Positions 1,055 through 21,425 of a DNA stretch of 64,000 bases are shown here, piece by piece. The stretch spans positions 1 through 64,000 of the forward strand of contig NZ_FUZQ01000004.1 in the NCBI RefSeq assembly GCF_900167525.1, read 5' to 3'. Within the stretch, counting starts at the first letter, position 1. Each line of letters starts with the position of its first letter. The notes beneath the pieces are model-generated. The model had not been told where the DNA came from. It was given only the letters and a program-made list of their open reading frames with translations, and ran no database searches. The DNA comes from Krasilnikoviella flava (GTDB taxonomy: Bacteria; Actinomycetota; Actinomycetes; Actinomycetales; Cellulomonadaceae). Position numbers and translations under genes: made by a program.

Positions 1055-1118
1055 TTGACAGCGCGCGCGAGAGAGAGTCAGACTTCACTGAACGGAAACC
1101 CACTTTCGGTGGGTGGAA
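1055..1118 (+). promoter_or_regulatory. uraD operon promoter with tandem regulatory boxes
   Basis: A TTGACA -35 (1055-1060) is followed after 18 bp by CAGACT (1079-1084) as a weak -10. Two 15-bp boxes follow: TTCA-N7-GAAA at 1084-1098 and TTTC-N7-GGAA at 1104-1118, 20 bp apart. The same arrangement recurs before hyi and allE, so these are probably operator sites of the local IclR-family regulator. A six-pair inverted repeat, ACCCAC/GTGGGT (1098-1103/1109-1114), overlaps the second box. Confidence 0.55.
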
Positions 1119-1138
1119 TCTCTGAGGAGGATCGCTCG

Positions 1139-1642
1139 ATGATGAGTGCTGGTCTCGAGGCATTCAACACCGCAGACAGCCCATCTGCGCGGGAGCAGGT
1201 GCTGTCGTGCGCAGCCGTGGCGCGGTGGGCTGACGCGGTGGTCGCGGGCCGGCCGTACCCGGACGTCGATGCGGCCCTTGCCGCTGCCCGCACCGTGGCC
1301 GACCCTTGGAGCGAGGAAGAGATCGACTCCGCGCTCGCCCGTCACCCGCGGATCGGGGAGCGGGCCGAGGGGGCCGACGCCGACGCGGCGCACTCCCGCC
1401 GGGAACAGTCCGGGCTCGGCGAGCTGAGCGGGTCGGTCGAGGAACGCCTGCGTGCCGGCAACCGTGCCTACGAGGAGCGGTTCGGCCACGTCTTCCTCAT
1501 CCGTGCTGCGGGGCGAACCGCCGATGAGATCCTGGCGCAGCTCGAGGTGCGGTTGGCGAACGACCCGGCCGCCGAGCGTCGTATCGCAGGCCAGCAGCTG
1601 CGGGAGATCGCCGTGCTGCGGCTGGAAGGAGAGCTGGCATGA
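1139..1642 (+). CDS. uraD: 2-oxo-4-hydroxy-4-carboxy-5-ureidoimidazoline (OHCU) decarboxylase
   Basis: 167 aa. Decarboxylates OHCU to S-allantoin, the third step after urate oxidation. Family signatures visible are the WADAVVAGRPY stretch, HPRIGER with the catalytic-type His, the SRREQSGL segment and the FGHVFLIRAAGRTADEIL block, which is the classic end of this all-helical family. Start chosen at 1139 because GAGGAGG (1124-1130) sits 8 nt before it; an earlier in-frame ATG at 1055 overlaps the promoter. The stop overlaps the next start (ATGA), so it is translationally coupled to HIU hydrolase. Confidence 0.93.
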   Translation: MMSAGLEAFNTADSPSAREQVLSCAAVARWADAVVAGRPYPDVDAALAAARTVADPWSEEEIDSALARHPRIGERAEGADADAAHSRREQSGLGELSGSVEERLRAGNRAYEERFGHVFLIRAAGRTADEILAQLEVRLANDPAAERRIAGQQLREIAVLRLEGELA

Positions 1643-1977
1643 CCTCGCACATCACGACCCATGTCCTCGACGCCGTCTCGGGCCTGCCTGCGGCGGGCGT
1701 GGCCGTCTCCCTGTGGCGTGTCCGCACCGACAGCGCCGAGCGTATGGCTGACGCCACGACGGACGCCGACGGCCGGGTGAAGGACCTCGGCCCGCAGGTG
1801 CTCGAGCCGGGCACCTACCGCGTCACCTTCGCGACCGGCGACTACTTCGCCGACCGAGGGGTCGCGACCTTCTACCCGTCGATCACGATCGACTTCTCGG
1901 TCGAGGCCGGGCGCGACCACTACCACGTGCCCTGTTTGCTCAGCCCTTTCGCGTACTCGACGTACCGCGGGAGCTGA
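1639..1977 (+). CDS. uraH: 5-hydroxyisourate hydrolase (transthyretin-like)
   Basis: 112 aa, typical size for bacterial HIU hydrolase. Converts 5-hydroxyisourate, the product of urate oxidase, to OHCU. The N-terminal ITTHVLDAVSGLPAAGV motif carries the active-site His and the protein ends in the diagnostic YRGS tetrapeptide. An internal Arg in TYRVTF fits the catalytic Arg. Its start overlaps the uraD stop by 4 nt. A 134-nt gap then separates it from urate oxidase. Confidence 0.95.
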   Translation: MTSHITTHVLDAVSGLPAAGVAVSLWRVRTDSAERMADATTDADGRVKDLGPQVLEPGTYRVTFATGDYFADRGVATFYPSITIDFSVEAGRDHYHVPCLLSPFAYSTYRGS

Positions 1978-2111
1978 CAGGCCCAGGCCCCCCATCACCA
2001 GTCGCGGCAGAGGCGCCGCGGCCTGCGTCATCGTCATCGGAGACGTACCCCCGGGCCACCCTTGCGAGGCGGCCTCGGACAAACGCAACAACAGATGAAG
2101 GAGTCAGCACC

Positions 2112-3056
2112 ATGACTGCCACCGCCACCGACGCCCAGGCCACCACGGGCACGATCGTGCTGGGCGAGAACCAGTACGGCAAGGCCGAGGTCCGTGTCAT
2201 GAAGGTCGACCGCGACCAGGCGCGCCACCGCATCACCGAGCTCTCGGTGACCTCCCAGCTGCGCGGCGACTTCACCGCCGCGCACATCGACGGCGACCAG
2301 GGCCGCGTGGTCCCGACGGACACGCAGAAGAACACGGTGTTCGCGCTCGCCAAGGACGGCATCCCCTCGCCGGAGGAGTTCGCCCTTCGCCTGGGCGAGC
2401 ATTTCGTCTCGAGCTTCGACTGGATCGAGGGCGGCCGCTGGGAGGCCAAGGAGTACACCTGGGAGCACATCCCGTCCTCCCTGACCGCCAACGTCTCCGA
2501 CGGCGAGCACGACCACGCGTTCGTCAAGGGCGGCACGGAGACCCGCACCACCGTCGTCCAGCGCGAGGGCGAGGAGGTGTTCGTCGTCTCCGGTCTCGAG
2601 GACCTCAAGGTCCTCAAGTCGACGGGCTCCGAGTTCCACGGCTTCCCGAAGGACCGCTTCACGACGCTCCAGGAGACCACGGACCGGATCCTCGCGACGT
2701 CGGTCACGGCCCGGTGGCGCTACACGACGCTGGACATCGACTTCAACGCCGTCTATGACGACGTGCGTCGCATCCTGCTCGAGACGTTTGCGGACGTGCA
2801 CTCCCTCGCGCTGCAGCAGACGCTCTACCAGATGGGCAAGCGGGTGCTCGAGGCGCACCCGGAGATCGGCGAGATCAAGTTCTCGATGCCGAACCTGCAC
2901 CACTTCGTCGTGGATTTCGAGCCCTTCGGGCTGGAGAACCCGAACGAGGTCTTCTACGTCGCCGACAGGCCGTACGGGAAGATCGAGGCGGAGGTGAAGC
3001 GGGAGGGCGCGGACCAGGAGCCGCGCGCGTGGGCGACCGTCACGGGGTTCTGCTGA
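2112..3056 (+). CDS. pucL: Urate oxidase (uricase)
   Basis: 314 aa, cofactor-free uricase that oxidises urate to 5-hydroxyisourate with release of H2O2. Two T-fold modules are expected. Lys24 in QYGKAEVRV and Thr69 in PTDTQKNT match the catalytic Lys-Thr pair. The uricase motif FTTLQETTDRILATSV and the NLHHF His near the C terminus (third catalytic residue) are present. A ribosome site (AAGGAG) lies ~10 nt before the ATG. Stand-alone uricase, with the decarboxylase encoded separately just upstream. H2O2 production may explain the peroxiredoxin later in the cluster. Confidence 0.95.
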   Translation: MTATATDAQATTGTIVLGENQYGKAEVRVMKVDRDQARHRITELSVTSQLRGDFTAAHIDGDQGRVVPTDTQKNTVFALAKDGIPSPEEFALRLGEHFVSSFDWIEGGRWEAKEYTWEHIPSSLTANVSDGEHDHAFVKGGTETRTTVVQREGEEVFVVSGLEDLKVLKSTGSEFHGFPKDRFTTLQETTDRILATSVTARWRYTTLDIDFNAVYDDVRRILLETFADVHSLALQQTLYQMGKRVLEAHPEIGEIKFSMPNLHHFVVDFEPFGLENPNEVFYVADRPYGKIEAEVKREGADQEPRAWATVTGFC

Positions 3057-3096
3057 TCAGCGTGACTCCGTGGAGTCGGTTCGAAGGAGCATCGAC

Positions 3097-4776
3097 ATGA
3101 GCACGACGACGATCGACGCGGCCGCGGGGCCGGCCGCGTCGAAGGCCGGTCGACCGGAGGACGAGCGGTACCCGCTCGGCAAGACGTTCCTCTACGGCCT
3201 GCAGCACATCATGACGATGTACGGCGGCGTGATCGCGCCGCCGATCATCGTCGGGCAGGCGGCAGGGCTGACCGGGGCGGAGATCGGGGTCCTCGTCTCG
3301 GCCGCGCTGCTCGTCAGCGGCCTGGCCACCGCGCTCCAGACGCTCGGCATCCGCTTCTTCGGCTCTCAGCTCCCGCTGGTGCAGGGCATCTCGTTCGCCA
3401 CCGTGTCCACGATGGTCGCGGTGGCGAGCGGGGACGGCGGGCTGCCCGCCGTCTTCGGCGCGATCATCGTGGCGGCGGTTGTCGGGCTGGCGATCAGCCC
3501 CTTTTTCGCCCAGGTCGTGCGGTTCTTCCCGCCCGTCGTGACGGGCACGATCATCACGATCATCGGGGTCTCGCTGCTGCCGACGGCGGCCGGCTGGATG
3601 ATGGGCGGCGACGAGGAGGCGGCGGACTGGGGCTCGGTCCCCCACATCACCCTCGCGCTCGGCACGCTCGCCGTGGTGCTCTTCCTCAGCCGGTTCCTGC
3701 AGGGCACGATCTCGCGCCTGTCCATCCTGTTCGGCATCGTCATCGGCACCGTGGCGGCGGTGCCGCTCGGGCTGGCTGACTTCTCGGGGGTCGGTCAGGG
3801 GCCGGCGTTCGAGCTGCCGACGCCGTTCGCCTTCGGCGCCCCCGTCTTCGAGATCGGCGCGATCATCTCGATGACGATCGTGATCCTCGTGATCATGACG
3901 GAGACGACGGCCGACCTGATCGCCATCGGCGAGGTGCTCGACACCGAGGTCGACGCGAAGCGCGTCGGCGACGGGCTGCGGGCCGACATGGCCGCCACGC
4001 TGGTGGCGCCGTTCCTCAACTCGTTCCCCGCCTCCGCCTTCGCGCAGAACGTGGGCCTGGTCGCGATCACCGGCATCCGGTCCCGGTTCGCCGTCGCGGC
4101 GGGCGGCGCCGTCCTGTTCGTGCTGGGCCTGTTCCCGGTGCTGGGCCGCGTGGTCGCGGCGATCCCGCCGCCTGTGCTGGGCGGCGCCGGCATCGTCCTG
4201 TTCGGGTCGGTGGCCGTGTCCGGGATCCGCACGCTGTCGCGCGTCGAGTACGAGGGCAACCTCAACCTCACGCTCGTCGCGGTCGCGCTGGGGTTCGGCA
4301 TCGTCCCGATCGCCGTCCCGGACTTCTACGACCAGTTCCCGACCTGGGTAGGCATGATCTTCCACTCGGGTATCGCGGCGGCAGCCGTGGTCGCCGTCCT
4401 GCTCAACCTCGTGTTCAACGAGATCCGGTGGGGCCGCCGGAGCAAGGACCCGTCGGTGTTCACCGCGGGGTCCTCGGCGCGCCTGGTCGTGACGGAGGAG
4501 CAGGAGCAGCGCCGGGCGGAGTACTTCGCCCGCCTGGACGCGGAACGGCAGGAGGAACGTCGACGCGCCCGCCTCAACGCGGACGTGCGGGCACGGGTGC
4601 GCCACGGCCACGGCCGCCGGTCGGGCTGCGTGTCGGCGATCGACCTGGACGCCGACGGCGTGCCGGACGTGCTGCAGATCCGTGCGGGGGCACGCGCGGC
4701 GGTGGCCGAGCGTCCCGTGGCCCGCGCGCCCGGCGAGCTGGTGCACGCCGGCCGCGCCGAGGCGGGAGACGGGTGA
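3097..4776 (+). CDS. Nucleobase:cation symporter-2 family permease (urate/xanthine/uracil type)
   Basis: 559 aa, integral membrane protein of the NCS2/xanthine-uracil permease family with ~14 membrane spans. Family marks include the GLQHIMTMYGG start of TM1, a QLPLVQGISFA segment and SFPASAFAQNVGLVAITG in the substrate region. Context (directly after uricase) suggests urate or xanthine uptake, but substrate cannot be read from sequence alone. Start 3097 has GAAGGAG 9 nt upstream; the GTG at 3070 is less likely. The C-terminal ~110 residues form a charged cytoplasmic tail containing DLDADGVPD, a calcium-loop-like motif unusual for this family. Confidence 0.88.
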   Translation: MSTTTIDAAAGPAASKAGRPEDERYPLGKTFLYGLQHIMTMYGGVIAPPIIVGQAAGLTGAEIGVLVSAALLVSGLATALQTLGIRFFGSQLPLVQGISFATVSTMVAVASGDGGLPAVFGAIIVAAVVGLAISPFFAQVVRFFPPVVTGTIITIIGVSLLPTAAGWMMGGDEEAADWGSVPHITLALGTLAVVLFLSRFLQGTISRLSILFGIVIGTVAAVPLGLADFSGVGQGPAFELPTPFAFGAPVFEIGAIISMTIVILVIMTETTADLIAIGEVLDTEVDAKRVGDGLRADMAATLVAPFLNSFPASAFAQNVGLVAITGIRSRFAVAAGGAVLFVLGLFPVLGRVVAAIPPPVLGGAGIVLFGSVAVSGIRTLSRVEYEGNLNLTLVAVALGFGIVPIAVPDFYDQFPTWVGMIFHSGIAAAAVVAVLLNLVFNEIRWGRRSKDPSVFTAGSSARLVVTEEQEQRRAEYFARLDAERQEERRRARLNADVRARVRHGHGRRSGCVSAIDLDADGVPDVLQIRAGARAAVAERPVARAPGELVHAGRAEAGDG

Positions 4777-4803
4777 CGACGATGGCCGTCCCGTCACGAC
4801 GCA

Positions 4804-4834
4804 GGGTGCGAGGCGGGAGCCCCGCCTCGCACCC
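4804..4834. terminator. Bidirectional terminator between permease and IclR gene
   Basis: Perfect 14-bp inverted repeat (4804-4817 with 4821-4834) with a 3-nt loop in the 80-nt gap between two convergent genes. No T-run is seen, but symmetry and position fit shared termination. Confidence 0.75.
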
Positions 4835-4856
4835 CGCCTCGGGTCGCGCGCTGCCG

Positions 4857-5606
4857 TCAGGCGGCGAGAAGCTCCTTCGAGATGGTGTCGGCCACCTCGT
4901 GCAGCAGGGGGAGCGCGGCCTCGCCGAACTCGTAGGTCACGCGGGCCGCGGGCCCGGAGACCGAGAGCGCGGTCGGGGTGGGCGCGTCCTTGACGGGGAC
5001 GGCGAAGCACCGCACGCCGATCTCCTGCTCGCCGTCGTCGACGGCGTAGCCCTGCTCGCGGATGGTGCCGATCTCCTTGAGCAGGTCGTCGACGTCCGTG
5101 ATCGACAGGTCGGTGGCGGGCGGCATCCCGACGCGGCCGACGATGTCGCGGACCGTCTGGTCCGGCAGCTCGGCGAGCACCATCTTCCCGACGCCGGTGC
5201 AGTGCGTGTACACGCGCCGTCCCACCTCGGTGAACATCCGCATCGAGTAGGACGACGACGCCTGGGCCACGTAGACGACCATGTCGCGGTCGATCATCGC
5301 GAGGTTGGCGCTCTCGCCGAGCTCGCGGGCGAGGCGCTCCAGGTGGGGGCGCGCGCTGGCGCCGAGCTGGCGCCCGGCGCTCTCGCCCAGCCGGATGAGG
5401 CGCGGGCCCAGGGTGTACCGGCGCGACGGGAGCTGGCGGGCGTAGCCCCGGCCGACGAGCGTCCGCATGAGCCGGTGGATCGTCGGGAGCGGGAGGTTCG
5501 CGGCCGCGGCGAGCTCGCTGAGGGCCGCGTCACCGCCGAGGTCGGTCATGATCTCGAGCAGGTCGATCGCCCGGTCCACCGACTGGACTCCGGTGCCGTT
5601 CGCCAT
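4857..5606 (-). CDS. IclR-family transcriptional regulator (AllR-like)
   Basis: 249 aa. N-terminal winged helix (about residues 5-70: SVDRAIDLLEIM, then LPLPTIHRLMRTLVGRGYA recognition helix region) and a C-terminal IclR effector domain (about 85-245), with THCTGVGKMVLAELP and VDDGEQEIGVRCFAVPV as in glyoxylate/allantoin-type IclR proteins. Placed between the urate permease (convergent) and malic enzyme (divergent). Likely represses the ureide/glyoxylate genes in response to a metabolite such as glyoxylate or allantoin; this is inferred. Candidate operators sit in the divergent intergenic region and before at least three other operons. GTCGCG-rich leader with GAAGGAGGACGCG just before the ATG gives a good ribosome site. 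Confidence 0.88.
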   Translation of the reverse strand: MANGTGVQSVDRAIDLLEIMTDLGGDAALSELAAAANLPLPTIHRLMRTLVGRGYARQLPSRRYTLGPRLIRLGESAGRQLGASARPHLERLARELGESANLAMIDRDMVVYVAQASSSYSMRMFTEVGRRVYTHCTGVGKMVLAELPDQTVRDIVGRVGMPPATDLSITDVDDLLKEIGTIREQGYAVDDGEQEIGVRCFAVPVKDAPTPTALSVSGPAARVTYEFGEAALPLLHEVADTISKELLAA

Positions 5607-5701
5607 GGTCGCGTCCTCCTTCGCCTACGGCCCCGGCTTCGCCGCCGGGCCGTCCGTGCGTGCTCCCACGTCGGCGAGCACTCCGCATTCCCCTGAACCG
5701 T

Positions 5702-5737
5702 GGTCGGTCCCAGGAAGCATCCTTCCACATCTCGGAA
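5702..5737. promoter_or_regulatory. Candidate IclR-type operator between regulator and malic enzyme
   Basis: A perfect TTCC-N7-GGAA box lies at 5723-5737. A right half-site only (GGAA) lies 21 bp upstream in 5702-5716. An overlapping inverted repeat GGAAG-CATC-CTTCC is at 5713-5726. The position between divergent genes fits joint control and autoregulation. No convincing -10/-35 pair is visible for either gene. Confidence 0.5.
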
Positions 5738-5774
5738 CTTCATGACATCAGCAGGACGAAAGGAAACCCAGGCC

Positions 5775-7253
5775 ATGGCGATGCCCAGCCCCAGCTACAC
5801 GATCACCCTCCGCGTCGAGGCGCCCGCGACCCAGCGCGCGACGAGCGAGATCGTCCACGAGATCGCCACGGCCGGCGGCTCGGTGATGGGCGTCGACATC
5901 GCCCAGTCCCACGCCGACACGATCGTCGTCGACGTCACCTGCGACACGGTCGACGCCGAGCACGGGGAGCGGATCGTCGCGGCGCTCGACGCCCTGGACG
6001 GCGTGCGCGTGCTGAAGATGTCGGACTCGACGTTCCTCATGCACCTCGGCGGCAAGATCTCCGTGACCCCGAAGGTGCCGCTCAAGACGCGCCGCGACCT
6101 CTCGCGCGCCTACACCCCGGGCGTCGCCCGCGTGTGCCTCGCGATCGCGGACCGCCCCGAGGACGCGCGCCGTCTCACCATCAAGCGGAACACGGTCGCG
6201 GTGGTCACCGACGGGACGGCGGTGCTCGGCCTCGGCGACATCGGGCCGCAGGCCGCCATGCCGGTCATGGAGGGCAAGGCCGCGCTGTTCAAGCAGTTCG
6301 CGGACGTCGACGCGTGGCCCCTCGCCCTCGACACCACGGACACCGAGGAGATCATCCGGACCGTGAAGGCGATCGCGCCCGGCTTCGGCGGCGTGAACCT
6401 CGAGGACATCTCCGCGCCGCGCTGCTTCGAGATCGAGAAGCGCCTGCGCGAGGAGCTCGACATCCCCGTCTTCCACGACGACCAGCACGGCACAGCCATC
6501 GTCGTGCTCGCGGCGCTCATCAACGCGCTCAAGGTCGTGAACAAGAAGATCGGGGACGTGCGCATCGCGGTGTCGGGCGTCGGCGCCGCGGGGTCGGCCA
6601 TCATCCGGCTGCTGCTGGCGCAGGGCGCCCGGGACATCATCGGCTTCGACCGGCACGGCGCGCTCACCCCCGAGTCGGCGGCCGGCGACGAGAACCGGAC
6701 CTGGATCGTGGAGAGCACGAACCCGTCCGGCTTCACGGGCACGCTCAAGGAGGGCCTGGTCGGGGCCGACGTCTTCGTCGGCGTCTCGGCGGGCAACATC
6801 CTCGTGGGCGCCGACGTGGCGACGATGGCCGACGGTGCCATCGTGTTCGCCCTCGCGAACCCGACGCCCGAGGTCGACCCGATCGCGGCGGGCGAGACGG
6901 CCGCCGTCGTGGCCACCGGCCGCAGCGACTACCCGAACCAGATCAACAACGTGCTGGCGTTCCCCGGCCTGTTCCGGGGGCTGCTCGACGCGGGTGCGAC
7001 GCAGATCACCGACGAGATGCTCCGCGTGGCGGCCGTCGCGATCTCCTCGGTGGTGAGCGAGGACGAGCTCAACCCGGCGTTCATCATCCCCGGCGTGTTC
7101 GACCACCGCGTGGCCGAGGCCGTCGCCGACGCCGTGCGGGCCGAGGGGCTCAAGGAGGTCGCGGTGGCCGAGCAGCGCGCCGAGGACGCCGAGCACCTGG
7201 CCCCCCACCTCGGCCGCGTGCTGCACGCGGACGCCGCGGCGGTGGCCCGATGA
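5775..7253 (+). CDS. NAD(P)-dependent malic enzyme with N-terminal ACT domain
   Basis: 492 aa. Oxidative decarboxylation of malate to pyruvate. Residues ~5-80 form an ACT-like regulatory domain (SYTITLRVEAPA...), followed by the malic enzyme N domain with SRAYTPGVARVC and the NAD-binding domain with GVGAAGSAIIRLLL. FHDDQHGTAIVVLAAL carries metal-ligand acidic residues. In this setting it drains malate made by malate synthase from glyoxylate. Start 5775 chosen because AAAGGA lies ~11 nt upstream; a GTG at 5700 would overlap the operator. Its stop overlaps the next start, so the two genes form an operon. Confidence 0.9.
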   Translation: MAMPSPSYTITLRVEAPATQRATSEIVHEIATAGGSVMGVDIAQSHADTIVVDVTCDTVDAEHGERIVAALDALDGVRVLKMSDSTFLMHLGGKISVTPKVPLKTRRDLSRAYTPGVARVCLAIADRPEDARRLTIKRNTVAVVTDGTAVLGLGDIGPQAAMPVMEGKAALFKQFADVDAWPLALDTTDTEEIIRTVKAIAPGFGGVNLEDISAPRCFEIEKRLREELDIPVFHDDQHGTAIVVLAALINALKVVNKKIGDVRIAVSGVGAAGSAIIRLLLAQGARDIIGFDRHGALTPESAAGDENRTWIVESTNPSGFTGTLKEGLVGADVFVGVSAGNILVGADVATMADGAIVFALANPTPEVDPIAAGETAAVVATGRSDYPNQINNVLAFPGLFRGLLDAGATQITDEMLRVAAVAISSVVSEDELNPAFIIPGVFDHRVAEAVADAVRAEGLKEVAVAEQRAEDAEHLAPHLGRVLHADAAAVAR

Positions 7254-8506
7254 AGGCCTCCCTCGGCCAGGCGACGCTCGACGACGTCGAGCGGCGGCTC
7301 GCCGCGCACGACGCCCACCTCGAGCGCGCCTACCCGGGCGACGACGGCACGCGGCAGCCGGTGCACACCGTGTACGTGCCGGCGCACCGCTACGCGGCCG
7401 GGCTCGCGCAGGACTGGGGTGCCCAGGCCCTCGCCGTGGTCGACGCGCAGGGCACGGACGCGCTCCTGGACGCCGTCGGCGTGCGGGACGACCTGCGCGA
7501 GGCGGTCGCCGCACAGGTGCATCGCAAGCTCGAGGTGGAGCCGATCGAGGACCTGCGGATCGACCTCGAGGACGGGTACGGCACGCACCCGGACGCCGCC
7601 GAGGACGAGGTGACGGCCGCGGCCGCCACCGCGCTGCGCACCGAGCTGGACGCCGGGAGCGCGACGCCGTTCGTCGGCATCCGGTTCAAGTGCTTCGAGC
7701 GGCCCACCCGCGCCCGGGGGCTGCGGACCCTGGACGTGTTCGTCAGCACCCTGGCTGCCTCGGGGAACCTGCCCGCCGGCCTCGTCCTGACCCTGCCGAA
7801 GGTGACCGCCGTCGCGCAGGTCGAGGCGATGGTCGCCGTCTGCGAGCGGCTCGAGGAGGCCAACGGCCTCCCGGCGGGGCGCCTGCGCTTCGAGGTGCAG
7901 GTCGAGACCCCGCAGTCGATCCTCGACGCCGCGGGCACGGCCACGGTGGCACGGATGATCCACGCGGGGGCGGGGCGCGTCAGCGGCCTGCACTACGGGA
8001 CCTACGACTACTCCGCGTCGCTCGGCATCGCCGCGGCGTACCAGTCGATGGAGCACCCGGCCGCGGACCTCGCCAAGGAGGTCATGCAGCTGGCGGCCGC
8101 CGGCACGGGCGTGCGGTTGTCCGACGGTTCGACGAACGTGCTCCCGGTGGGTGAGGACGCGCAGGTGCGCGCCGCATGGGCCAACCACGGGCGCCTCGTG
8201 CGCCGGTCGCTGGAGCGCGGGTTCTACCAGGGCTGGGACCTGCACCCGGCCCAGCTCCCGAGCCGGTTCGCGGCAACGTACGCGTTCTACCGGGAGGGCT
8301 TCGAGCCCGCGACCGAGCGGCTGGCGAACTATGTGAACAGGGTGGAGGGGGCGGTGCTCGACGAACCCGCCACCGCCAAGGCCCTCGCGTGGTACCTCAA
8401 GCGCGGTGTCGACTGCGGCGCGCTGAGCGCCGAGGAGATCGTCGAGCGCGTCGGCCTGCAGCCGGCCGCGCTCACGGCGATGGTGACGCGCCCGCTCGGG
8501 GGCTGA
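7250..8506 (+). CDS. HpcH/HpaI aldolase/citrate lyase-like protein (DUF6986 type)
   Basis: 418 aa. TIM-barrel aldolase of the CitE/HpcH superfamily: RIDLEDGYGTH and RFEVQVETPQSI carry acidic residues like those that hold Mg2+ in the family, and GLHYGTYDYSASLGI resembles the substrate loop. Relatives cleave or form CoA thioesters or 2-keto acids such as malyl-CoA, so glyoxylate could be a substrate, but the reaction is not established. ATG overlaps the malic enzyme stop (ATGA), indicating tight coupling. A strong hairpin follows. I assign superfamily, not function. Confidence 0.75.
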   Translation: MKASLGQATLDDVERRLAAHDAHLERAYPGDDGTRQPVHTVYVPAHRYAAGLAQDWGAQALAVVDAQGTDALLDAVGVRDDLREAVAAQVHRKLEVEPIEDLRIDLEDGYGTHPDAAEDEVTAAAATALRTELDAGSATPFVGIRFKCFERPTRARGLRTLDVFVSTLAASGNLPAGLVLTLPKVTAVAQVEAMVAVCERLEEANGLPAGRLRFEVQVETPQSILDAAGTATVARMIHAGAGRVSGLHYGTYDYSASLGIAAAYQSMEHPAADLAKEVMQLAAAGTGVRLSDGSTNVLPVGEDAQVRAAWANHGRLVRRSLERGFYQGWDLHPAQLPSRFAATYAFYREGFEPATERLANYVNRVEGAVLDEPATAKALAWYLKRGVDCGALSAEEIVERVGLQPAALTAMVTRPLGG

Positions 8507-8624: not shown

Positions 8625-8690
8625 TTGACCGATCGCACCGGGCCGACGTAGCGTTTCCATAACAAGGAACCAATCTTCCATCTGGCGAAA
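8625..8690 (+). promoter_or_regulatory. hyi operon promoter with tandem TTCC-N7-GGAA boxes
   Basis: TTGACC (8625-8630), 18-bp spacer, TAGCGT (8649-8654). Immediately after the -10 comes a perfect TTCC-N7-GGAA box (8655-8669) and, 21 bp on, TTCC-N7-GAAA (8676-8690). Boxes cover the start site and early transcript, a repressor-type geometry matching the uraD and allE promoters. Confidence 0.65.
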
Positions 8691-8701
8691 GCGAGTCAGC
8701 G

Positions 8702-13568: not shown

Positions 13569-14908
13569 CCGACACCGCCACCCATGACCTCGTCGTCCGC
13601 GCCGCCCGCGCGCTGACCCCCGACGGTGAGCGCGCCGTCGAGGTCGGCGTGACCGCCGGCCGGATCGAGACGGTCGTCCCGCTCGGTACCGGCCTCGCCG
13701 GCTCCGAGGTGCTGGAGCTGGCCGAGGACGAGGTGCTGCTCCCCGGGCTCGTCGACTCGCACGTGCACGTCAACGAGCCGGGCCGCACCGAGTGGGAGGG
13801 CTTCGCCACCGCCACGCGCGCCGCCGCGGCCGGGGGCGTCACGACCATCGTGGACATGCCGCTGAACTCGCTGCCGCCCACGACCTCGGTCGCGAACCTG
13901 GCGGTCAAGAAGCAGCGCGCCGTGGACCAGGCGTTCGTGGACGTCGGGTTCTGGGGTGGCGCCGTGCCGGGCAACACGGCGGACCTGCGCCCCCTGCACG
14001 ACGCGGGCGTGTTCGGCTTCAAGTGCTTCCTCGCCGACTCGGGCGTGCCGGAGTTCGGCCACCTGGAGGACGCGGAGCTGCGCACGGACCTTGCCGAGCT
14101 GACCTCGTTCGGCGCCATGATGATCGTGCACGCGGAGGACCCGGGCACGCTCGAGGACGCCCCGCAGGAGCCCGGCCCCACCTACAAGCACTTCCTCGCC
14201 TCCCGCCCGGCCAAGGCGGAGTCCACGGCGATCGCCGGGCTCATCGACGCCGCCCGCGTCACGGGCGCCCGCGCGCACGTGCTGCACCTGTCCGACGCCG
14301 ACTCGCTGCCGATGATCGCGGCCGCGCGGGCCGAGGGCGTGCGCCTCACGGTCGAGACCTGCCCGCACTACCTGTCGCTGGACGCCGACCACGTGCCCGA
14401 CGGCGCGACGGCCTACAAGTGCTGCCCGCCGATCCGCGAGCAGGACAACCAGGACCGCCTCTGGCAGGGCCTGCGCGACGGCCTGATCGACGTCGTCGTC
14501 ACCGACCACTCGCCGGCCACCGCCGCGCTCAAGGAGCCGGCGTCGGGCGACTTCGCCGAGGCCTGGGGCGGCGTCGCGTCGCTGCAGCTCGGCCTCGCCG
14601 TGGTGTGGACCGAGGCCCGTCGTCGGGGCGTCCCGCTCGCCGACGTGGTGCGCTGGATGTCCGCGGGCCCGGCCGCGCTGGTCGGCCTGGAGCGCAAGGG
14701 CGGCATCGCGGTCGGCAAGGACGCGGACCTCGCCGTCTTCGCGCCGGAGGCGACCTTCGTCGTCGACCCGACGCGCCTGCACCACAAGAACCCGGTCACG
14801 CCGTACTCCGGCCGTGACCTCACGGGTGTCGTACGACGCACGCTGCTGCGTGGTCGTCCCGTGGGCGACGAGCCCGCCGGCACCCTGCTGCGCCGCGGCG
14901 AGTCCTGA
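13565..14908 (+). CDS. allB: Allantoinase
   Basis: 447 aa, cyclic amidohydrolase that opens allantoin to allantoate. Metal-site elements visible: [17 protein letters not shown] (first HxH), [10 protein letters not shown] with the carbamylated Lys, [17 protein letters not shown] and VVTDHSP with the final Asp. The E-P-G-R-T-E-W-E-G pattern separates allantoinase from dihydroorotase. Translationally coupled to glycerate kinase, so allantoin opening and the end of the glycerate route are co-expressed. Confidence 0.95.
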
Positions 14909-14967
14909 CCCGCCACGGTTCCCTGCCACCGACACGAACGAACGACACGAACGAACGAGGACGCACG

Positions 14968-15462
14968 ATGACGCGACTCCAGCCGGGCGACACCGCCCCC
15001 GACTTCACCCTGCCCGACGCCGCCGGCGCGACCGTGTCCCTCGCGGACGTGCGCGCGGGCGCGGACAAGGGCGTGGTCGTCTACTTCTACCCGAAGGCGG
15101 GCACCCCCGGGTGCACCACCGAGGCGTGCGACTTCCGCGACAACCTCGCCTCGCTCGCGGGGGCGGGGTACGCCGTCGTCGGGGTCTCCGCGGACCCCGT
15201 CGAGGACATCCGCGCCTTCGTCGACGCCGAGCACCTGACGTTCCCCCTGCTGAGCGACGCGGACCACGCGGTGGCCGACGCCTACGGCACGTGGGGCCCC
15301 AAGACGATCGACGGCCGGACGTTCGACGGGGTGCACCGCTGCACCTTCGTCGTCGAGCCGGGCGGGTCGATCCGTTCCGCCGAGTACGACGTCGAGGCCA
15401 CGGGTCACGTGGCCGCGCTGCGCGCGCAGCTCGTGGGTGCCCGAGAGGGCGTGAACCGCTAG
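14968..15462 (+). CDS. bcp: Thioredoxin-dependent peroxiredoxin (BCP/PrxQ type)
   Basis: 164 aa thiol peroxidase. Peroxidatic Cys49 and resolving Cys54 are in AGTPGCTTEACDFRD, the 2-Cys BCP spacing. GVSADPVEDI and the HRCTFVVEPGG strand are typical. It sits 59 nt after allB. In a cluster with uricase, a role in removing the H2O2 from urate oxidation is plausible but inferred. The spacer holds a short duplication of ACACGAACGAACG before the ribosome site. Confidence 0.92.
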   Translation: MTRLQPGDTAPDFTLPDAAGATVSLADVRAGADKGVVVYFYPKAGTPGCTTEACDFRDNLASLAGAGYAVVGVSADPVEDIRAFVDAEHLTFPLLSDADHAVADAYGTWGPKTIDGRTFDGVHRCTFVVEPGGSIRSAEYDVEATGHVAALRAQLVGAREGVNR

Positions 15463-15477
15463 GGTTCCCCCAGAGGT

Positions 15478-15513
15478 TTCCACCAGGCGTAATCAGGATT
15501 CCGCTATGCATCG
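15478..15513 (+). promoter_or_regulatory. Degenerate tandem boxes before malate synthase
   Basis: TTCC-N7-GTAA at 15478-15492 has one mismatch to the TTCC-N7-GGAA box, and a TTCC left half-site lies 21 bp further on at 15499. A TAGGGT hexamer (15460-15465) upstream could serve as -10, without a clear -35. The spacing matches the better tandem boxes, but the sites are weak. Confidence 0.35.
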
Positions 15514-15573
15514 GTTCGCCATGCAGCGTGCAGCACACCCGAACCAGCAGGACAAGAACAAGGAGGGACTGTC

Positions 15574-17163
15574 GTGGAGCTCCCCGACGGCCTGACCATC
15601 ACCGCCGAGATCGGTGAGCGCGACACCGAGGTCCTCACCCCGGCCGCGCTCGACCTCATCGTGACCCTGCAGCGCGAGCTGGGCGGCCGTCGCCTCGAGC
15701 TGCTGGAGGCGCGGCAGCGTCGCCGCCAGGCGCTGGCCGACGGGGGCACGCTCGACTTCCTCCCGGAGACCGCGCACATCCGTGCCGACGACTCCTGGAC
15801 CGTGGCCGCCCCGGCCCCCGGGCTCGTCGACCGCCGCGTGGAGATCACCGGCCCGACGGACCGCAAGATGACCGTCAACGCGCTCAACTCGGGCGCGAAG
15901 TGCTGGCTCGCCGACCAGGAGGACGCGAACACGCCGCAGTGGCGCAGCGTGGTCGGCGGCCAGCTCAACCTGCTCGACGCGATCAACCGCACGATCGACT
16001 TCACCAACGAGGCGAACGGCAAGCGCTACGAGCTCAAGCCGGACGACGAGCTCGCGACGATCATCATGCGCCCCCGCGGGTGGCACATGAACGAGAAGCA
16101 CGTGCTGGTCGACGGCACGGAGGCCTCGGGCTCCCTGGTCGACTTCGCGCTCTACGTCGCGACGGCGGGGCTGCGGCAGATCGAGAAGGGCCTCGGGCCG
16201 TACTTCTACCTGCCGAAGATGGAGTCGCACCTCGAGGCGCGGCTCTGGAACGACGCGTTCGTCCTGGCGCAGGACGCCCTCGGCATCCCGCGCGGCACCA
16301 TCCGTGCCACGGTGCTCATCGAGACCATCCCGGCGGCGTTCGAGATGGAGGAGATCCTCTACGAGCTGCGCGAGCACTCCGCGGGCCTCAACGCCGGCCG
16401 CTGGGACTACCTGTTCTCCGTGGTGAAGAACTTCCGCAAGAGCGGGTCCGCCTACCTGCTGCCCGACCGCAACCAGATCACCATGACGGTGCCGTTCATG
16501 CGGGCCTACACCGAGCTGCTCGTCTCGACGTGCCACCAGCGCGGCGCGCACGCCATCGGCGGCATGGCCGCGTTCATCCCGAGCAAGGACGCCGAGGCCA
16601 ACGAGCAGGCCTACGCCAAGGTGAGCGCCGACAAGGCGCGCGAGGCCGGCGACGGCTTCGACGGCTCCTGGGTGGCGCACCCGGGCATGGTCGCCACCTG
16701 CAAGGAGGCGTTCACCGCCGTGCTCGGCGACCGGCCGAACCAGATCGACCGCAAGCGCGAGGACGTGCGCGTGACGGCCGCCGACCTGCTGTCGGTGGAC
16801 AAGACGCCGGGCACCGTCACCGAGGCGGGCCTGCGCAACAACGTGTCCGTCGGCATCCAGTACCTGCACGCCTGGCTGGGCGGGCTCGGCGCGGTCGCCA
16901 TCTTCGGCCTCATGGAGGACGCCGCGACCGCGGAGATCTCCCGGTCGCAGGTGTGGCAGTGGCTGCACAACGGCGTCGTCCTCGCCGACACGGGCGAGAG
17001 GGTGACCCGCGAGCTGGTGGACCGGCTCGTCGCCGAGGAGGTGGCCAAGCTCCCGGGCGACGCCGCCGACTACGCCGTGGCGCGCAGCACGTTCCTCGAG
17101 GTCGCCGTGGCCGACGAGTACATCGACTTCCTCACGACGGCCGCCTACGAGCGGATGGACTGA
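15574..17163 (+). CDS. aceB: Malate synthase A
   Basis: 529 aa, typical of isoform A (about 530 aa, against about 720 for G). Condenses glyoxylate and acetyl-CoA to malate. The family signature is seen in KNFRKSGSAYLLPDRNQITM and in the GGMAAFIPSKD strand. IMRPRGWHMNEKH carries the catalytic Arg region and AIFGLMEDAATAEISRSQVW the C-terminal catalytic Asp/Glu. GTG start at 15574 with AGGAGGG (15561-15567). No isocitrate lyase is adjacent, so glyoxylate most likely comes from ureides. A strong terminator follows. Confidence 0.95.
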   Translation: MELPDGLTITAEIGERDTEVLTPAALDLIVTLQRELGGRRLELLEARQRRRQALADGGTLDFLPETAHIRADDSWTVAAPAPGLVDRRVEITGPTDRKMTVNALNSGAKCWLADQEDANTPQWRSVVGGQLNLLDAINRTIDFTNEANGKRYELKPDDELATIIMRPRGWHMNEKHVLVDGTEASGSLVDFALYVATAGLRQIEKGLGPYFYLPKMESHLEARLWNDAFVLAQDALGIPRGTIRATVLIETIPAAFEMEEILYELREHSAGLNAGRWDYLFSVVKNFRKSGSAYLLPDRNQITMTVPFMRAYTELLVSTCHQRGAHAIGGMAAFIPSKDAEANEQAYAKVSADKAREAGDGFDGSWVAHPGMVATCKEAFTAVLGDRPNQIDRKREDVRVTAADLLSVDKTPGTVTEAGLRNNVSVGIQYLHAWLGGLGAVAIFGLMEDAATAEISRSQVWQWLHNGVVLADTGERVTRELVDRLVAEEVAKLPGDAADYAVARSTFLEVAVADEYIDFLTTAAYERMD

Positions 17164-17210
17164 GGAACCGGCACGCTCGGCTGCGACGGGGGCGCCGAGC
17201 ACCGCCGGAG

Positions 17211-17256
17211 CGAGACGGCCGGGACCACGTTCTGTGACGTGGTCCCGGCCGTCTCG
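17211..17256 (+). terminator. Strong terminator after malate synthase
   Basis: Perfect 20-bp stem (17211-17230 with 17237-17256) and a 6-nt TCTGTG loop, 47 nt after the aceB stop. It ends the ureide/glyoxylate region before gatCAB. Confidence 0.85.
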
Positions 17257-17318
17257 TCATCGGTGTCCGTCATCTGCGCCGTCACGTGGGGACAACGTCC
17301 CCGACATGTGCCGACCAC

Positions 17319-17324
17319 TAGACT
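17319..17324 (+). promoter_or_regulatory. -10 box of leaderless gatCAB promoter
   Basis: TAGACT ends 7 nt before the gatC ATG, which places the start site at or near the A of the start codon. There is no ribosome site before gatC. This fits leaderless transcription. No clear -35. Confidence 0.55.
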
Positions 17325-17331
17325 GGCGGCC

Positions 17332-17628
17332 ATGTCCACCATCTCCCGAGACGAGGTCGCGCGCGTCGCCGCCCTGGCCCGGATCGACCTGCGCGACGAC
17401 GAGGTCGACCGGCTCGCCGGCGAGCTCGACGTCATCGTCGACTCGATCGCCCGCGTGCGCGAGGTCGCCACCCCTGACGTCCCCGCGACGAGCCACCCGC
17501 TGCCCCTGACCAACGTGTTCCGCGAGGACGTGCCGCAGCCGGCGCTGCCCGTGGCCGACGTGCTGGCCTCCGCGCCGGACGCCCAGGACGGGCGCTTCGC
17601 CGTGCCGCAGATCCTCGGGGAGGAGTGA
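17332..17628 (+). CDS. gatC: Glutamyl/aspartyl-tRNA(Gln/Asn) amidotransferase subunit C
   Basis: 98 aa, the small stabilising subunit of GatCAB that converts Glu-tRNA(Gln) (and/or Asp-tRNA(Asn)) to the amidated form. Start [17 protein letters not shown] and the end [13 protein letters not shown] are the classic GatC features. The ATG at 17332 follows a -10 box by 7 nt; upstream in-frame codons lie in the terminator region. gatA starts 1 nt after its stop. Confidence 0.95.
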
Positions 17629-17629
17629 G

Positions 17630-19150
17630 ATGACGGACCTGACCCGCCTCAGCGCCGCCCGCCTGGCCGAGACGCTGGCCGCCGGCGAGGCCTCCAGTGT
17701 CGAGGTGACCCGCGCGCACCTGGACCGCATCGCCGCCGTCGACGGCGACGTGCACGCCTTCCTGCACGTCAACGAGGACGACGCGCTGGCCACGGCCGCC
17801 GACGTCGACGCCCGTCGCGCGGCCGGCGAGGAGCTGCACGCGCTGGCCGGCGTGCCGATCGCCGTCAAGGACGTCGTCGTGACGAAGGGCATGCCGTCCA
17901 CCGCCGGCTCGAAGATCCTCGAGGGCTGGATCCCGCCCTACGACGCGACCCTCGTCGAGAAGCTCCGCGCCGCGGGCCTGCCGATCCTCGGCAAGACGAA
18001 CATGGACGAGTTCGCGATGGGCTCCTCCACGGAGCACTCGGCCTACGGCGACACGCACAACCCGTGGGACCTCGACCGCATCCCCGGCGGCTCCGGCGGT
18101 GGCTCCGCGGCCGCGGTCGCGGCCTTCGAGGCCCCGCTGGCGATCGGCACCGACACCGGCGGCTCGATCCGCCAGCCGGGCGCCGTCACCGGCACGGTCG
18201 GCGTGAAGCCCACGTACGGCGGCGTCTCGCGCTACGGCCTCATCGCCATGGCGTCCTCGCTCGACCAGGCGGGCCCCGTCACGCGTACCGTGCTGGACTC
18301 CGCGCTGCTGCACGAGCTCATCGGCGGCCACGACCCCCGCGACTCGACGTCCATCCCCGAGCCGCTGCCGCCGCTGGTCGCCGCGGCCCGCCAGGGTGCG
18401 CTGGGCGACCTGTCGGGCCTCAAGGTCGGCGTCGTGACGCAGCTGCAGGGCGAGGGCTATCAGCCGGGCGTGCTCGCGCGGTTCCACGAGTCGCTCGAGC
18501 TGCTGACGAAGGCCGGCGCCGAGGTCGTCGAGGTCTCCTGCCCGAGCTTCGACTACGCGCTCGCGGCGTACTACCTGATCATGCCGGCGGAGGCGTCGAG
18601 CAACCTCGCGAAGTTCGACGGCATGCGGTTCGGCCTGCGGGTCGAGCCCACCGACGGCCCGGTCACCGCCGAGCGCGTCATGGCCGCCACCCGCGGGGCC
18701 GGCTTCGGCGACGAGGTCAAGCGCCGCGTCATCCTGGGCACCTACGCCCTGTCGGCCGGTTACTACGACGCCTACTACGGCAGCGCGCAGAAGGTCCGCA
18801 CGCTCATCCAGCGCGACTTCGCCGCAGCCTTCGCGCAGGCCGACGTGCTGGTCTCGCCCACGGCCCCGACCACGGCGTTCAAGCTGGGGGAGAAGCTGGA
18901 CGACCCGCTGGCGATGTACCTCAACGATGTCGCGACCATCCCGGCCAACCTGGCCGGCGTGCCGGGCATCTCGGTGCCGAACGGCCTTGCTGCGTCGTCG
19001 GAGGGTGGCGCCGACCTGCCCACAGGTTTCCAGATCCTCGCGCCGGCGAAGGCGGACGACCGCCTCTACCGTGTCGGCGCCGCGCTCGAGTCGGCCCTCG
19101 AGTCCACCTGGGGCGCCCCGCTGCTGGCCAGCGCGCCCGAGCTGGGCTGA
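17630..19150 (+). CDS. gatA: Glutamyl/aspartyl-tRNA amidotransferase subunit A (amidase)
   Basis: 506 aa amidase-signature protein; releases ammonia from glutamine for the GatB site. Ser-cisSer-Lys triad elements are visible: Lys in [10 protein letters not shown], the Gly/Ser-rich [17 protein letters not shown], and nucleophile Ser in [16 protein letters not shown]. Tightly spaced within gatCAB (1 nt after gatC). Length agrees with the family (485-510 aa). Confidence 0.96.
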
Positions 19151-19175
19151 CGGCGGAGAACAGGAGAACACCGCT

Positions 19176-20690
19176 GTGACCACGACCACCCATGGGACCC
19201 CTGCTCTCGTCGCCTACGACGACGCCGTGCGCCGCTACGACCCGGTGATCGGCATCGAGGTGCACGTCGAGCTCGGCACCCGCACCAAGATGTTCTGCGC
19301 GGCCGAGCAGTCGTTCGGCGCCGAGCCGAACACGCAGACCACGCCGGTGTCGCTCGGGCTGCCGGGCGCGCTGCCCGTCGTCAACGGCACCGCCGTCGAG
19401 TACGCGATCCGCATCGGCCTGGCGCTCAACTGCCAGATCGCCGAGACCTGCCGCTTCGCCCGGAAGAACTACTTCTACCCGGACGTGCCGAAGAACTTCC
19501 AGACGTCGCAGTACGACGAGCCGATCGCCTTCGAGGGCTTCCTCGACGTCGAGCTCGAGGACGGCACGGTGCACCGCGTCGAGATCGAGCGCGCGCACAT
19601 GGAGGAGGACGCCGGCAAGAACACGCACGTCGGCGGTTCGGCCGGCCGCATCCACGGCGCCGAGTACTCGCTGGTCGACTACAACCGCGCCGGCGTCCCG
19701 CTGGTGGAGATCGTCACCAAGCCGATCACCGGCGCGGGGGAGCGGGCGCCCGAGGTGGCCCGCGCCTACGTGCAGGCGCTGCGCGACATCTTCCGCGTGC
19801 TCGACGTCTCCGAGGCCCGCATGGAGCGCGGCAACGTCCGCGCCGACGTCAACCTCTCGCTGCGCCCGACGCCCGAGTCGCCGCTCGGCACCCGCACCGA
19901 GACGAAGAACGTCAACTCGTTCCGCTCGGTCGAGCGGGCGGTGCGCTACGAGGTCTCGCGCCAGGCCGCGATCCTCGACGCCGGCGGGACGGTGATCCAG
20001 GAGACCCGGCACTTCCACGAGGAGGACGGCTCGACGTCGCCCGGCCGTGTGAAGTCGGACGCCGAGGACTACCGGTACTTCCCGGAGCCCGACCTCGTGC
20101 CCGTCGCGCCCTCGCGCGAGTGGGTCGAGGAGATCCGCGCGACGCTGCCCGAGCTGCCGCAGGCCCGGCGCCGCCGCCTGCACGACGAGTGGGGCTTCGC
20201 GGACGCCGAGATGCGCGACGTCGTCAACGCGGGAGCGCTCGACCTCATCGAGGCGACCGTCGCCGCGGGCGCGACCCCGGCCGCGGCCCGCAAGTGGTGG
20301 ATGGGTGAGCTGGCTCGCCGGGCCAAGCAGGACGAGGTCGAGCTGGCGGATCTCGCGATCACGCCCGCACAGATCGGCGAGCTGCAGCAGCTCGTCGACT
20401 CCGGCCGCATCAACGACAAGATCGCCCGCCAGGTGCTCGACGGCGTGCTCGCCGGCGAGGGCGATCCGGAGGCGGTCGTGGCGGCCCGCGGCCTGGAGGT
20501 CGTCTCGGACGACGGCCCGCTCCTCGAGGCGATCGACGCGGCGCTGGCGGCCCAGCCCGACATCGTGGAGAAGGTCCGCGGGGGCAACCAGGGCCCGGTG
20601 GGCGCCATCATCGGCGCGGTGATGAAGGCGACGAGGGGCCAGGCGGACGCCAAGCGCGTGCGCGAGCTGGTGCTGGAGAGGATCGGCTGA
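19176..20690 (+). CDS. gatB: Glutamyl/aspartyl-tRNA amidotransferase subunit B
   Basis: 504 aa. Binds the misacylated tRNA and performs kinase/amidation chemistry. Conserved [11 protein letters not shown] near the N terminus, [18 protein letters not shown], and the C-terminal YqeY-like tail domain ([18 protein letters not shown]). GTG start at 19176 with AGGAGA (19162-19167). Its TGA shares one base with the ATG of the following acetyltransferase gene. Confidence 0.95.
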
Positions 20691-21274
20691 TGCGGTCGCC
20701 CGTCCTGCACGGGGAGCTCGTGCGCCTGCGCCCGCTCGAGACGCGCGACGCTCACCGGCTCTGGGTGTCGCTGCGCGACCCCGACAGCGGGCGGCTGACG
20801 GGCATGGGCACGAGCGGCGCCTCGACCCGTGCCGAGGTGGACGCGTGGGCCGCACGCGCGGCGGAGCTCCCCGCCCGGTACGACTGGGCGGTCACGTCGG
20901 CCGCCGTGCGCGACGGGGAGCTCGTCAGCGACGACCTGATCGGCGAGATCTCGCTCGACCAGGTGGACCTCGTGCTGCGGTCGGCCAGCCTGCGCCTGCG
21001 GATGATGCCCGACTACCGGGGCCGGGGGTACGGGCGCGAGGCCATCGGTGAGGTGCTGCGGTTCGCGTTCGACGGCGGCGCCGGCCCGGGGCTGCACCGC
21101 GTGAGCCTCGCGGTGATCAGCATCAACCCGCGGGCCCGCGCGCTGTACGACTCGCTCGGGTTCCGCGAGGAGGGGCGCCTGCGCGACGCCTTCCGCGACG
21201 GGAAGGGCTGGGCGGACGCCGTCGTCATGAGCATCCTCGAGGACGAGTTCCGCGCCGGGTCCGGCACGGACTGA
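20690..21274 (+). CDS. GNAT-family N-acetyltransferase (RimJ/RimL-like)
   Basis: 194 aa. N-terminal LVRLRPLETRDA and the acetyl-CoA loop RMMPDYRGRGYGREA place it in the GNAT superfamily, RimJ/RimL branch, with the late INPRARALYDSLGFREEGRLRD block. Substrate unknown. Its start overlaps the gatB stop by one base, so it is the last gene of the gat operon, though a functional link is not obvious. Confidence 0.85.
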   Translation: MRSPVLHGELVRLRPLETRDAHRLWVSLRDPDSGRLTGMGTSGASTRAEVDAWAARAAELPARYDWAVTSAAVRDGELVSDDLIGEISLDQVDLVLRSASLRLRMMPDYRGRGYGREAIGEVLRFAFDGGAGPGLHRVSLAVISINPRARALYDSLGFREEGRLRDAFRDGKGWADAVVMSILEDEFRAGSGTD

Positions 21275-21362
21275 CGACCACCCACGACGACGGCCCACGA
21301 CGCGGCCACGACGCCGGTGACCGCACGCCCGCGGCCACCGGCGTCGTCGTCCACGGGCGTCC

Positions 21363-21425
21363 TTGACACTGTCGCCGCCCGCGCCTTAACTTCATATCGC
21401 AGAAACAGTATTCCAAACTATGGAA
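21363..21425 (+). promoter_or_regulatory. allE promoter with tandem regulatory boxes
   Basis: TTGACA (21363-21368), 18-bp spacer, TAACTT (21387-21392). TTCA-N7-GAAA at 21391-21405 overlaps the -10 end and a perfect TTCC-N7-GGAA lies at 21411-21425, 20 bp later. The 20-bp spacing is identical to the uraD promoter, and the layout relative to -35/-10 is nearly so, linking this distant gene to the ureide regulon. Confidence 0.7.

What the first reader, a model, noticed from the sequence alone, without database searches (positions are those of the whole stretch)
1055..21425. Shared tandem operator architecture across the ureide/glyoxylate regulon
A 15-bp box TTCC/A-N7-GRAA occurs in pairs 20-21 bp apart just downstream of the -10 at uraD (1084-1098, 1104-1118), hyi (8655-8669, 8676-8690) and allE (21391-21405, 21411-21425). 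There is a weaker pair at aceB (15478, 15499) and one perfect site in the iclR/malic enzyme intergenic region (5723-5737). The -35 to first-box distance is 28-30 bp in the three best cases. The IclR-family gene at 4857-5606 is the only local candidate. Seen: the sites and geometry. Known: IclR proteins bind short palindromes. Inferred: which protein binds.
Basis: partly seen in the sequence, partly recalled or inferred. Interest (0 to 1): 0.72.

Follow-up and report, generated by a model that had tools for sequence, protein, structure and literature searches.

The report
AllR repressor operators for purine breakdown
The repeated DNA boxes are real and conserved, and are most likely the landing sites of an AllR-type repressor (a sequence inference, not shown by binding) that switches purine-breakdown and glyoxylate-disposal genes together, a kind of control already known in related bacteria.

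Summary
The window is from Isoptericola, an actinobacterium. TTCC-N7-GGAA boxes occur in pairs at the heads of the uraD, hyi and allE units, with weaker pairs at malic enzyme and aceB. The window has 3 perfect boxes against 0.2 expected; the genome has 13. In 80 loci with an orthologous IclR gene, spacer N7 and pair distance 21 stand far above other spacers and distances. Across five Isoptericola genomes half-sites stay while interiors, linkers and flanks drift. Malic-enzyme genes of six regulator-less congeners lack the boxes; a seventh has one. The 4857-5606 protein is therefore very probably the binder, an actinobacterial AllR with four of five glyoxylate-contacting residues kept. One conserved unlinked target appears: a xanthine-permease-like gene beside 8-oxoguanine deaminase. 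The architecture is not new: tandem IclR-family sites 18-22 bp apart are described for 94 ortholog groups, and AllR control of allantoin genes is published for Streptomyces coelicolor (title and citing sentence). No binding was measured.

The parts
1055..1060 (+). -35-like TTGACA of the uraD-uraH-uox-uacT unit
   Evidence: sequence; TTGACA at the same distance from box 1, to within one base, in the five Isoptericola rows
1104..1118 (+). uraD operator box 2, TTTCGGTGGGTGGAA; one mismatch here, perfect in the other four Isoptericola
1139..1642 (+). uraD (OHCU decarboxylase), first gene of the urate-to-allantoin unit
   Evidence: start codon 1139 or 1142
4857..5606 (-). IclR-family regulator, actinobacterial AllR; the inferred binding protein
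5702..5716 (+). weak candidate partner box of the malic-enzyme operator, GGTCGGTCCCAGGAA
   Evidence: 21 bp from 5723; 2-3 mismatches in the five Isoptericola
5723..5737 (+). malic-enzyme / allR intergenic operator box, TTCCACATCTCGGAA
   Evidence: at most one mismatch in 5 of 5 AllR-bearing Isoptericola
5775..7253 (+). malic enzyme (maeB-like), likely start at 5775
8625..8630 (+). -35-like TTGACC of the hyi unit
8655..8669 (+). hyi operator box 1, TTCCATAACAAGGAA
8676..8690 (+). hyi operator box 2, TTCCATCTGGCGAAA
8702..14908 (+). hyi-glxR-gcl-glxK-allB unit (glyoxylate to glycerate route and allantoinase); the internal heads checked (glxR, gcl, allB) carry no pair
15478..15492 (+). aceB operator box 1, TTCCACCAGGCGTAA
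   Evidence: one mismatch; present in 4 of 5 Isoptericola
15499..15513 (+). aceB box 2, left half only (TTCC)
   Evidence: TTCC at +21 in the 4 Isoptericola aligned
15574..17163 (+). malate synthase aceB (cluster copy)
21363..21368 (+). -35-like TTGACA of allE
21411..21425 (+). allE operator box 2, TTCCAAACTATGGAA
21464..22291 (+). ureidoglycine aminohydrolase (allE-like; also passes the NCBIfam cut-off for 'bifunctional allantoicase/(S)-ureidoglycine aminohydrolase')

Best explanation
These are operators of an actinobacterial AllR, the IclR-family protein encoded at 4857-5606. Two AllR dimers (a tetramer) sit side by side on one face of the DNA on two palindromes 21 bp apart. At uraD, hyi and allE the pair begins at the end of a weak -10 and covers the likely transcription start, so bound AllR would keep RNA polymerase off or block it. 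Glyoxylate, the end product of ureide breakdown, would release it, switching on together urate and allantoin breakdown (uraD unit, allE, allB), both glyoxylate outlets (gcl route; malate synthase plus malic enzyme) and an unlinked purine permease. Shown here: sites, spacing, conservation, absence from most malic-enzyme genes of regulator-less congeners, four of five effector residues kept. Inferred: binding, tetramer, repression, glyoxylate as effector.
For: Three perfect boxes against 0.2 expected. In the 80 best loci around relatives of the regulator (558 were found), TTCC-N7-GGAA occurs 151 times against 4-23 for the other 15 spacers, and 103 neighbours of perfect boxes lie at 21 bp against 5 at 20 and 1 at 22. 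In 23 stretches outside Streptomyces, chosen by hand to drop near-duplicates, N7 gives 36 against 1-10, and distance 21 occurs 21 times against 4 at 20. Upstream of allR, pairs at 21 against 25 bp: 46 against 4 of 56 (Streptomyces-type; reversed motif at 21 bp: 5) and 16 against 1 of 24 (others; reversed: 0). Across five Isoptericola genomes and five promoters, 66 of 80 half-site columns are invariant, 43 of 100 interior and linker columns, 32 of 215 flank columns (Fisher P = 4e-8 for the first two). allR and allE occur in the same 7 of 22 genomes. Malic-enzyme boxes: 5 of 5 Isoptericola with AllR, 0 of 6 congeners without AllR at 76-80% identity (one of these, G014, has an in-frame stop); the unlinked malate synthase copy of the five AllR-bearing Isoptericola has none in 5 of 5. 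PTIHRL of the recognition stretch is kept in all 12 actinobacterial sequences aligned. Of five oxygen-contacting effector residues listed in PMC11323563, four are identical and Ala is Val, by my hand reading.
Against: No binding or expression data. The half-site is shared: GenR is listed as ATTCC-N7(5)-GGAAT in PMC8222616, and a 20-bp pair lies upstream of a TRAP-transporter gene near another IclR gene in the same genome. Whole-genome pair counts alone discriminate poorly: with at most two mismatches at 21 bp, 24 hits in 9 of 22 genomes against 18 control hits in 12 of 22; all 7 AllR genomes and 2 of 15 others have a hit, but in G019 none of its 5 hits is on the allR contig. One AllR-less congener (G004, malic enzyme 90% identical with an in-frame stop) has a perfect single box in an unrelated promoter. 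Outside Isoptericola, AllR-bearing G019 and G020 have no box at their aceB copies (0 of 3), and allE heads show no pair in 6 of 6. Among the Streptomyces-type loci the few urate genes present show no pair (uraD 0 of 4, uox 0 of 8, uraH 0 of 7). The pyruvate-contacting hydrophobic patch is mostly changed (hand reading). NCBIfam's E. coli AllR model is far below its cut-off (94 against 406 bits). 56 of the 80 loci are Streptomyces-type, so counts are not independent.
Confidence: 0.89

Rival explanations
1. Another IclR-family paralogue in the genome binds these boxes, alone or together with AllR.
For: The genome has seven further IclR-like matches and the half-site is shared with at least GenR (PMC8222616).
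Against: The boxes accompany relatives of the 4857-5606 gene across genera, often in the region upstream of allR itself. Paralogues are 36% identical or less, and the three whose recognition stretch I could read differ from AllR there.
Confidence: 0.07
2. AllR acts here as an activator, or as activator at some units and repressor at others, as reported for the related BhcR.
For: BhcR (best NCBIfam hit, below its cut-off) activates its cluster in vivo (PMC11323563). No TTGAC-type -35 was found before the malic-enzyme and aceB boxes.
Against: At uraD, hyi and allE the pair starts at or just after the -10, a position that suits repression. The S. coelicolor homologue is described as a repressor in PMC12772271.
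Confidence: 0.12
3. The boxes are chance or a compositional by-product in a 73% G+C genome.
For: Boxes with one mismatch are common (13 with at most one mismatch against 8.3 expected), and whole-genome pair counts are close to their controls.
Against: Perfect boxes, spacing controls in the allR loci, and footprinting.
Confidence: 0.01

Closest known systems
AllR of Streptomyces coelicolor (Navone et al. 2015; I saw only its title in a reference list and one citing sentence)
   Same: IclR-family regulator tied to allantoin genes; in most Streptomyces loci fetched the relative lies beside allB and near aceB, with the same boxes 21 bp apart.
   Different: Here the predicted set also includes the urate unit, hyi-gcl, a malic enzyme, allE and an unlinked purine permease. 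I could not compare operators or targets with the paper's own.
IclR-family tandem operators, 18-22 nt between centres, 94 ortholog groups (PMC8222616, passages read)
   Same: Palindromic boxes, 21-bp centre distance, half-sites of the group consensus GKTYCRYW3-4RYGRAMC.
   Different: Nothing in principle; this is one more instance. I could not see whether its supplement lists this group.
Escherichia coli AllR
   Same: Same pathway, IclR family, four of five glyoxylate-contacting residues shared.
   Different: Different listed operator (KTTGGAAWAWTWTTCCAAC); our protein is well below the NCBIfam equivalog cut-off.
GenR of Corynebacterium glutamicum
   Same: Listed motif ATTCC-N7(5)-GGAAT, the same half-site and spacer.
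   Different: Controls 3-hydroxybenzoate and gentisate use.

Membership tests
IclR-family transcription factor | HTH_IclR and IclR_C domains | tested here: met
   PF09339 and PF01614 above gathering scores
IclR-family tandem operators (PMC8222616) | two palindromes with 18-22 nt between centres | tested here: met
   21 bp at uraD, hyi and allE in five Isoptericola; the maeB partner is weak and aceB box 2 is a half
IclR-family group motif GKTYCRYW3-4RYGRAMC | half-sites in that order and spacing | tested here: met
   TTCC-N7-GGAA fits the W3 form at the half-sites; interior positions vary
E. coli-type AllR (NF007548) | score above the equivalog cut-off | tested here: not met
   94.3 bits against 406
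Actinobacterial AllR (S. coelicolor type) | orthology by identity, synteny and operator | tested here: inconclusive
   60-65% identity to Streptomyces proteins, mostly in allB-allR-aceB loci with the same boxes; the S. coelicolor sequence itself was not compared
Actinobacterial AllR (S. coelicolor type) | binds the operators and is released by an effector | not testable with these tools
   needs the protein; four of five effector residues kept

The most novel reading that the evidence does not exclude
One glyoxylate-sensing AllR governs a whole purine-to-pyruvate programme in Isoptericola: purine uptake at an unlinked locus, urate and ureide breakdown, and two glyoxylate outlets, including a dedicated malate synthase plus malic enzyme distinct from the unlinked malate synthase copy, through 21-bp tandem operators.
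Probability: 0.6. Interest if true: 0.35.

Novelty: new member of a known kind. Interest (0 to 1): 0.27.

Why it matters
It gives a clean, testable regulon for purine use and glyoxylate disposal in Isoptericola. It proposes that a malic enzyme, one of two malate synthases and an unlinked purine permease belong to it, and it fixes the likely operator register at 21 bp. It does not change what is known about IclR-family control.

Tried and rejected
Rejected: a 20-bp register at uraD and allE (conservation favours 21). A second unlinked purine permease (contig C2, pair with 3 mismatches) as a target: its orthologues in G010 and G005 show no pair. The two perfect boxes on contig C5, 404 bp apart, lie inside two tRNA-Val genes. 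The uraD hairpin ACCCAC-loop-GTGGGT (1098-1114) is not kept in L136 and L138. A control pattern that also stands out in the 80 loci, CCTT-N4-AAGG with 88 copies in 56 loci, is 58 times one of two 12-mers, so I take it for recurring sequence of related loci; I did not pursue it. Structure prediction was not run. Literature: the S. coelicolor AllR paper is not held; searches for 'SCO6246', 'Isoptericola' with 'allantoin', and a five-term regulon search returned nothing; I make no claim that this regulon is unpublished.

Weak points: upstream regions of divergent genes overlap, so the allR and allB counts are largely the same pairs. In one search box 1 was placed by its best motif match, so its invariance is biased upward, while box 2 followed at a fixed +21; aceB was left out of that count; columns are not independent. 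The 23 stretches leave out L005, L017, L018, L021 and L025 by hand, and two of the 23 (L141, L142) overlap. Genomes were called AllR-less at E 1e-60. G005, G003 and G013 have contig lengths equal to L005, L006 and L007, so they are the same genomes; one search lists both. In one search I did not examine the fragmentary malic enzyme of G006, that of G017, or second copies in three genomes. The permease pair was not found within 250 bases in G019 and G020.
Full report
What was checked. In the 64-kb window there are 3 perfect TTCC-N7-GGAA sites against 0.2 expected, and four promoters supply all 8 pair rows with at most 3 mismatches in total at 18-22 bp, against 0.32 expected. The whole genome of 4,846,016 bases has 13 perfect sites, reversed control 7; three of 13 falling in 20.4 kb has P = 2e-5, the stretch being chosen after the fact. 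So the pairs are concentrated here but not exclusive.

Identity of the genes. NCBIfam names OHCU decarboxylase (uraD), hydroxyisourate hydrolase, urate oxidase, a xanthine-permease-like transporter, glyoxylate carboligase, tartronate semialdehyde reductase, glycerate kinase, allantoinase, malate synthase A and ureidoglycine aminohydrolase above their cut-offs; hydroxypyruvate isomerase and malic enzyme match below theirs. The 4857-5606 protein has HTH_IclR and IclR_C domains. The 80 loci kept (of 558 with a relative) are from Isoptericola, Georgenia, Promicromonospora, Ruania and others, then mostly Streptomyces, at 98% down to 60% identity.

Comparative evidence. In those 80 loci (1.43 Mb), TTCC-Nk-GGAA was counted for k = 0-15: N7 gives 151, the others 4-23. 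From perfect boxes, neighbours with at most two mismatches lie at 21 bp in 103 cases, at 20 bp in 5 and at 22 bp in 1; 42 bp, a double step, has 21. 72 of 80 loci have at least one perfect box. Of the reversed control patterns, CCTT-N4-AAGG also stands out with 88, mostly two recurring 12-mers. In 23 hand-picked stretches outside Streptomyces: N7 36, others 1-10; distance 21 in 21 cases, 20 in 4. By gene head, within 400 bp and with at most 3 mismatches per pair, 21-bp against 25-bp pairs are 46 against 4 of 56 (allR, Streptomyces-type; reversed motif at 21 bp: 5), 42 against 1 of 51 (aceB, Streptomyces-type), 16 against 1 of 24 (allR, others), 11 against 1 of 16 (aceB), 8 against 0 of 11 (uraD), 11 against 0 of 11 (hyi) and 5 against 0 of 12 (maeB). 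Genes inside units, glxR, gcl, uox, uraH and bcp, have 0 pairs in 10, 9, 11, 11 and 5; gcl and uox have a single box with at most one mismatch in 2 loci each. Streptomyces-type uraD, uox and uraH heads have no pair in 4, 8 and 7. In the narrower scan the internal heads show no pair except uacT of L011.

Footprint. Five Isoptericola genomes were aligned at five promoters (uraD, hyi, allE, maeB and an unlinked permease). Half-site columns invariant: 30 of 40 in box 1, 36 of 40 in box 2. Interiors: 18 of 35 and 13 of 35. Linker: 12 of 30. Flanks: 26 of 160 and 6 of 55. At uraD the TTGACA keeps its distance to within one base while the spacer is replaced. This points to selection on the half-sites and on their 21-bp phase. 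The aceB pair, left out of that count, keeps TTCC-21-TTCC and AGGCGTAA in the four genomes aligned; G010 has no such box.

With and without the regulator. Of 22 genomes searched (own, 14 of the same genus, 7 of the same order), 7 have allR at E 1e-60 or better, and the same 7 have allE. Genome-wide pairs at 21 bp with at most two mismatches occur in all 7 and in 2 of 15 without allR, but the reversed control occurs in 12 of 22, and in G019 none of the hits is on the allR contig, so this count by itself is weak. Upstream of malic enzyme, a box with at most one mismatch is present in 5 of 5 AllR-bearing Isoptericola and in 0 of 6 AllR-less congeners at 76-80% identity, one of which (G014) has an in-frame stop; three AllR-less genomes of other genera (G015, G016, G018) have none. 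A seventh AllR-less congener (G004) has a 90% identical gene with a stop and a perfect single box in a different upstream sequence near a contig end; I cannot explain it. The unlinked malate synthase copy of the five AllR-bearing Isoptericola has no box in 5 of 5; in nine AllR-less congeners one (G004) has a single box with one mismatch. Outside the genus, the AllR-bearing G019 and G020 have no box at their three aceB genes.

A new target. The 21-bp genome hit at contig C8:173457 lies just upstream of a xanthine-permease-like gene whose neighbour is 8-oxoguanine deaminase (684.6 bits, cut-off 532). Its pair is present in 5 of 5 AllR-bearing Isoptericola, always at 21 bp, with interiors that differ in box 2. 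It was not found within 250 bases in G019 and G020.

How it probably works. From the -35, box 1 starts 27-30 bases on, at the end of a weak -10, and box 2 follows two turns later, over the likely start of transcription (positions by hand). This suits repression by blocking polymerase. PMC8222616 (abstract and passages read) reports tandem IclR-family sites mainly 19-21 nt apart and links them to tetramers with dimers on one face. PMC11323563 (passages read) lists five residues that hold the oxygens of glyoxylate or pyruvate in IclR; in our protein Gly, Asp, Ser and Ser are kept and Ala is Val, while the patch that contacts the methyl group of pyruvate is mostly changed, by my hand reading. Glyoxylate is therefore the most likely inducer, which makes sense for units that lead to or from it. 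These last steps are inference.

Known or new. The kind is known: IclR-family tandem operators and AllR control of allantoin genes. PMC12772271 (two passages read) cites the S. coelicolor work, whose title I saw only in its reference list. What this window adds is a further member with a longer predicted unit list.

Noticed in passing
L143:8454-8488 (own genome C9:53453-53487): A 20-bp pair GTCCGTCACACGGAA / TTCTGTCATACGGAA lies upstream of a TRAP-transporter binding-protein gene, about 4 kb from a different IclR gene beside kduI- and kduD-like genes: possibly a second IclR-family regulon with the same architecture.
   Followed up: partly
L146:4458-4493 (own genome C8:173457-173492): Conserved AllR-type pair upstream of an unlinked xanthine-permease-like gene next to 8-oxoguanine deaminase.
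   Followed up: yes
L186 (own genome C8:588638-590236): A second malate synthase, 62% identical to the cluster copy, without boxes; nine of ten same-genus genomes without allR have one such gene at 60-63% identity, the tenth (74% complete) none.
   Followed up: partly
L196:1-420 (G004:C5): In a congener without allR, a 90% identical malic enzyme with an in-frame stop sits near a contig end and has a perfect single box in an unrelated promoter.
   Followed up: no
L144:5178-5252 and 5582-5656 (own genome C5): Two of the genome's 13 perfect TTCC-N7-GGAA matches lie inside two tRNA-Val(gac) genes, so they are not operators.
   Followed up: yes
21464-22291: The allE product also passes the NCBIfam cut-off for 'bifunctional allantoicase/(S)-ureidoglycine aminohydrolase'; I did not look for a separate allantoate-degrading gene.
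   Followed up: no
7256-8506: A protein between malic enzyme and hyi with only a weak match to malyl-CoA lyase (37 bits, cut-off 500); probably co-transcribed with malic enzyme, role unclear.
   Followed up: no
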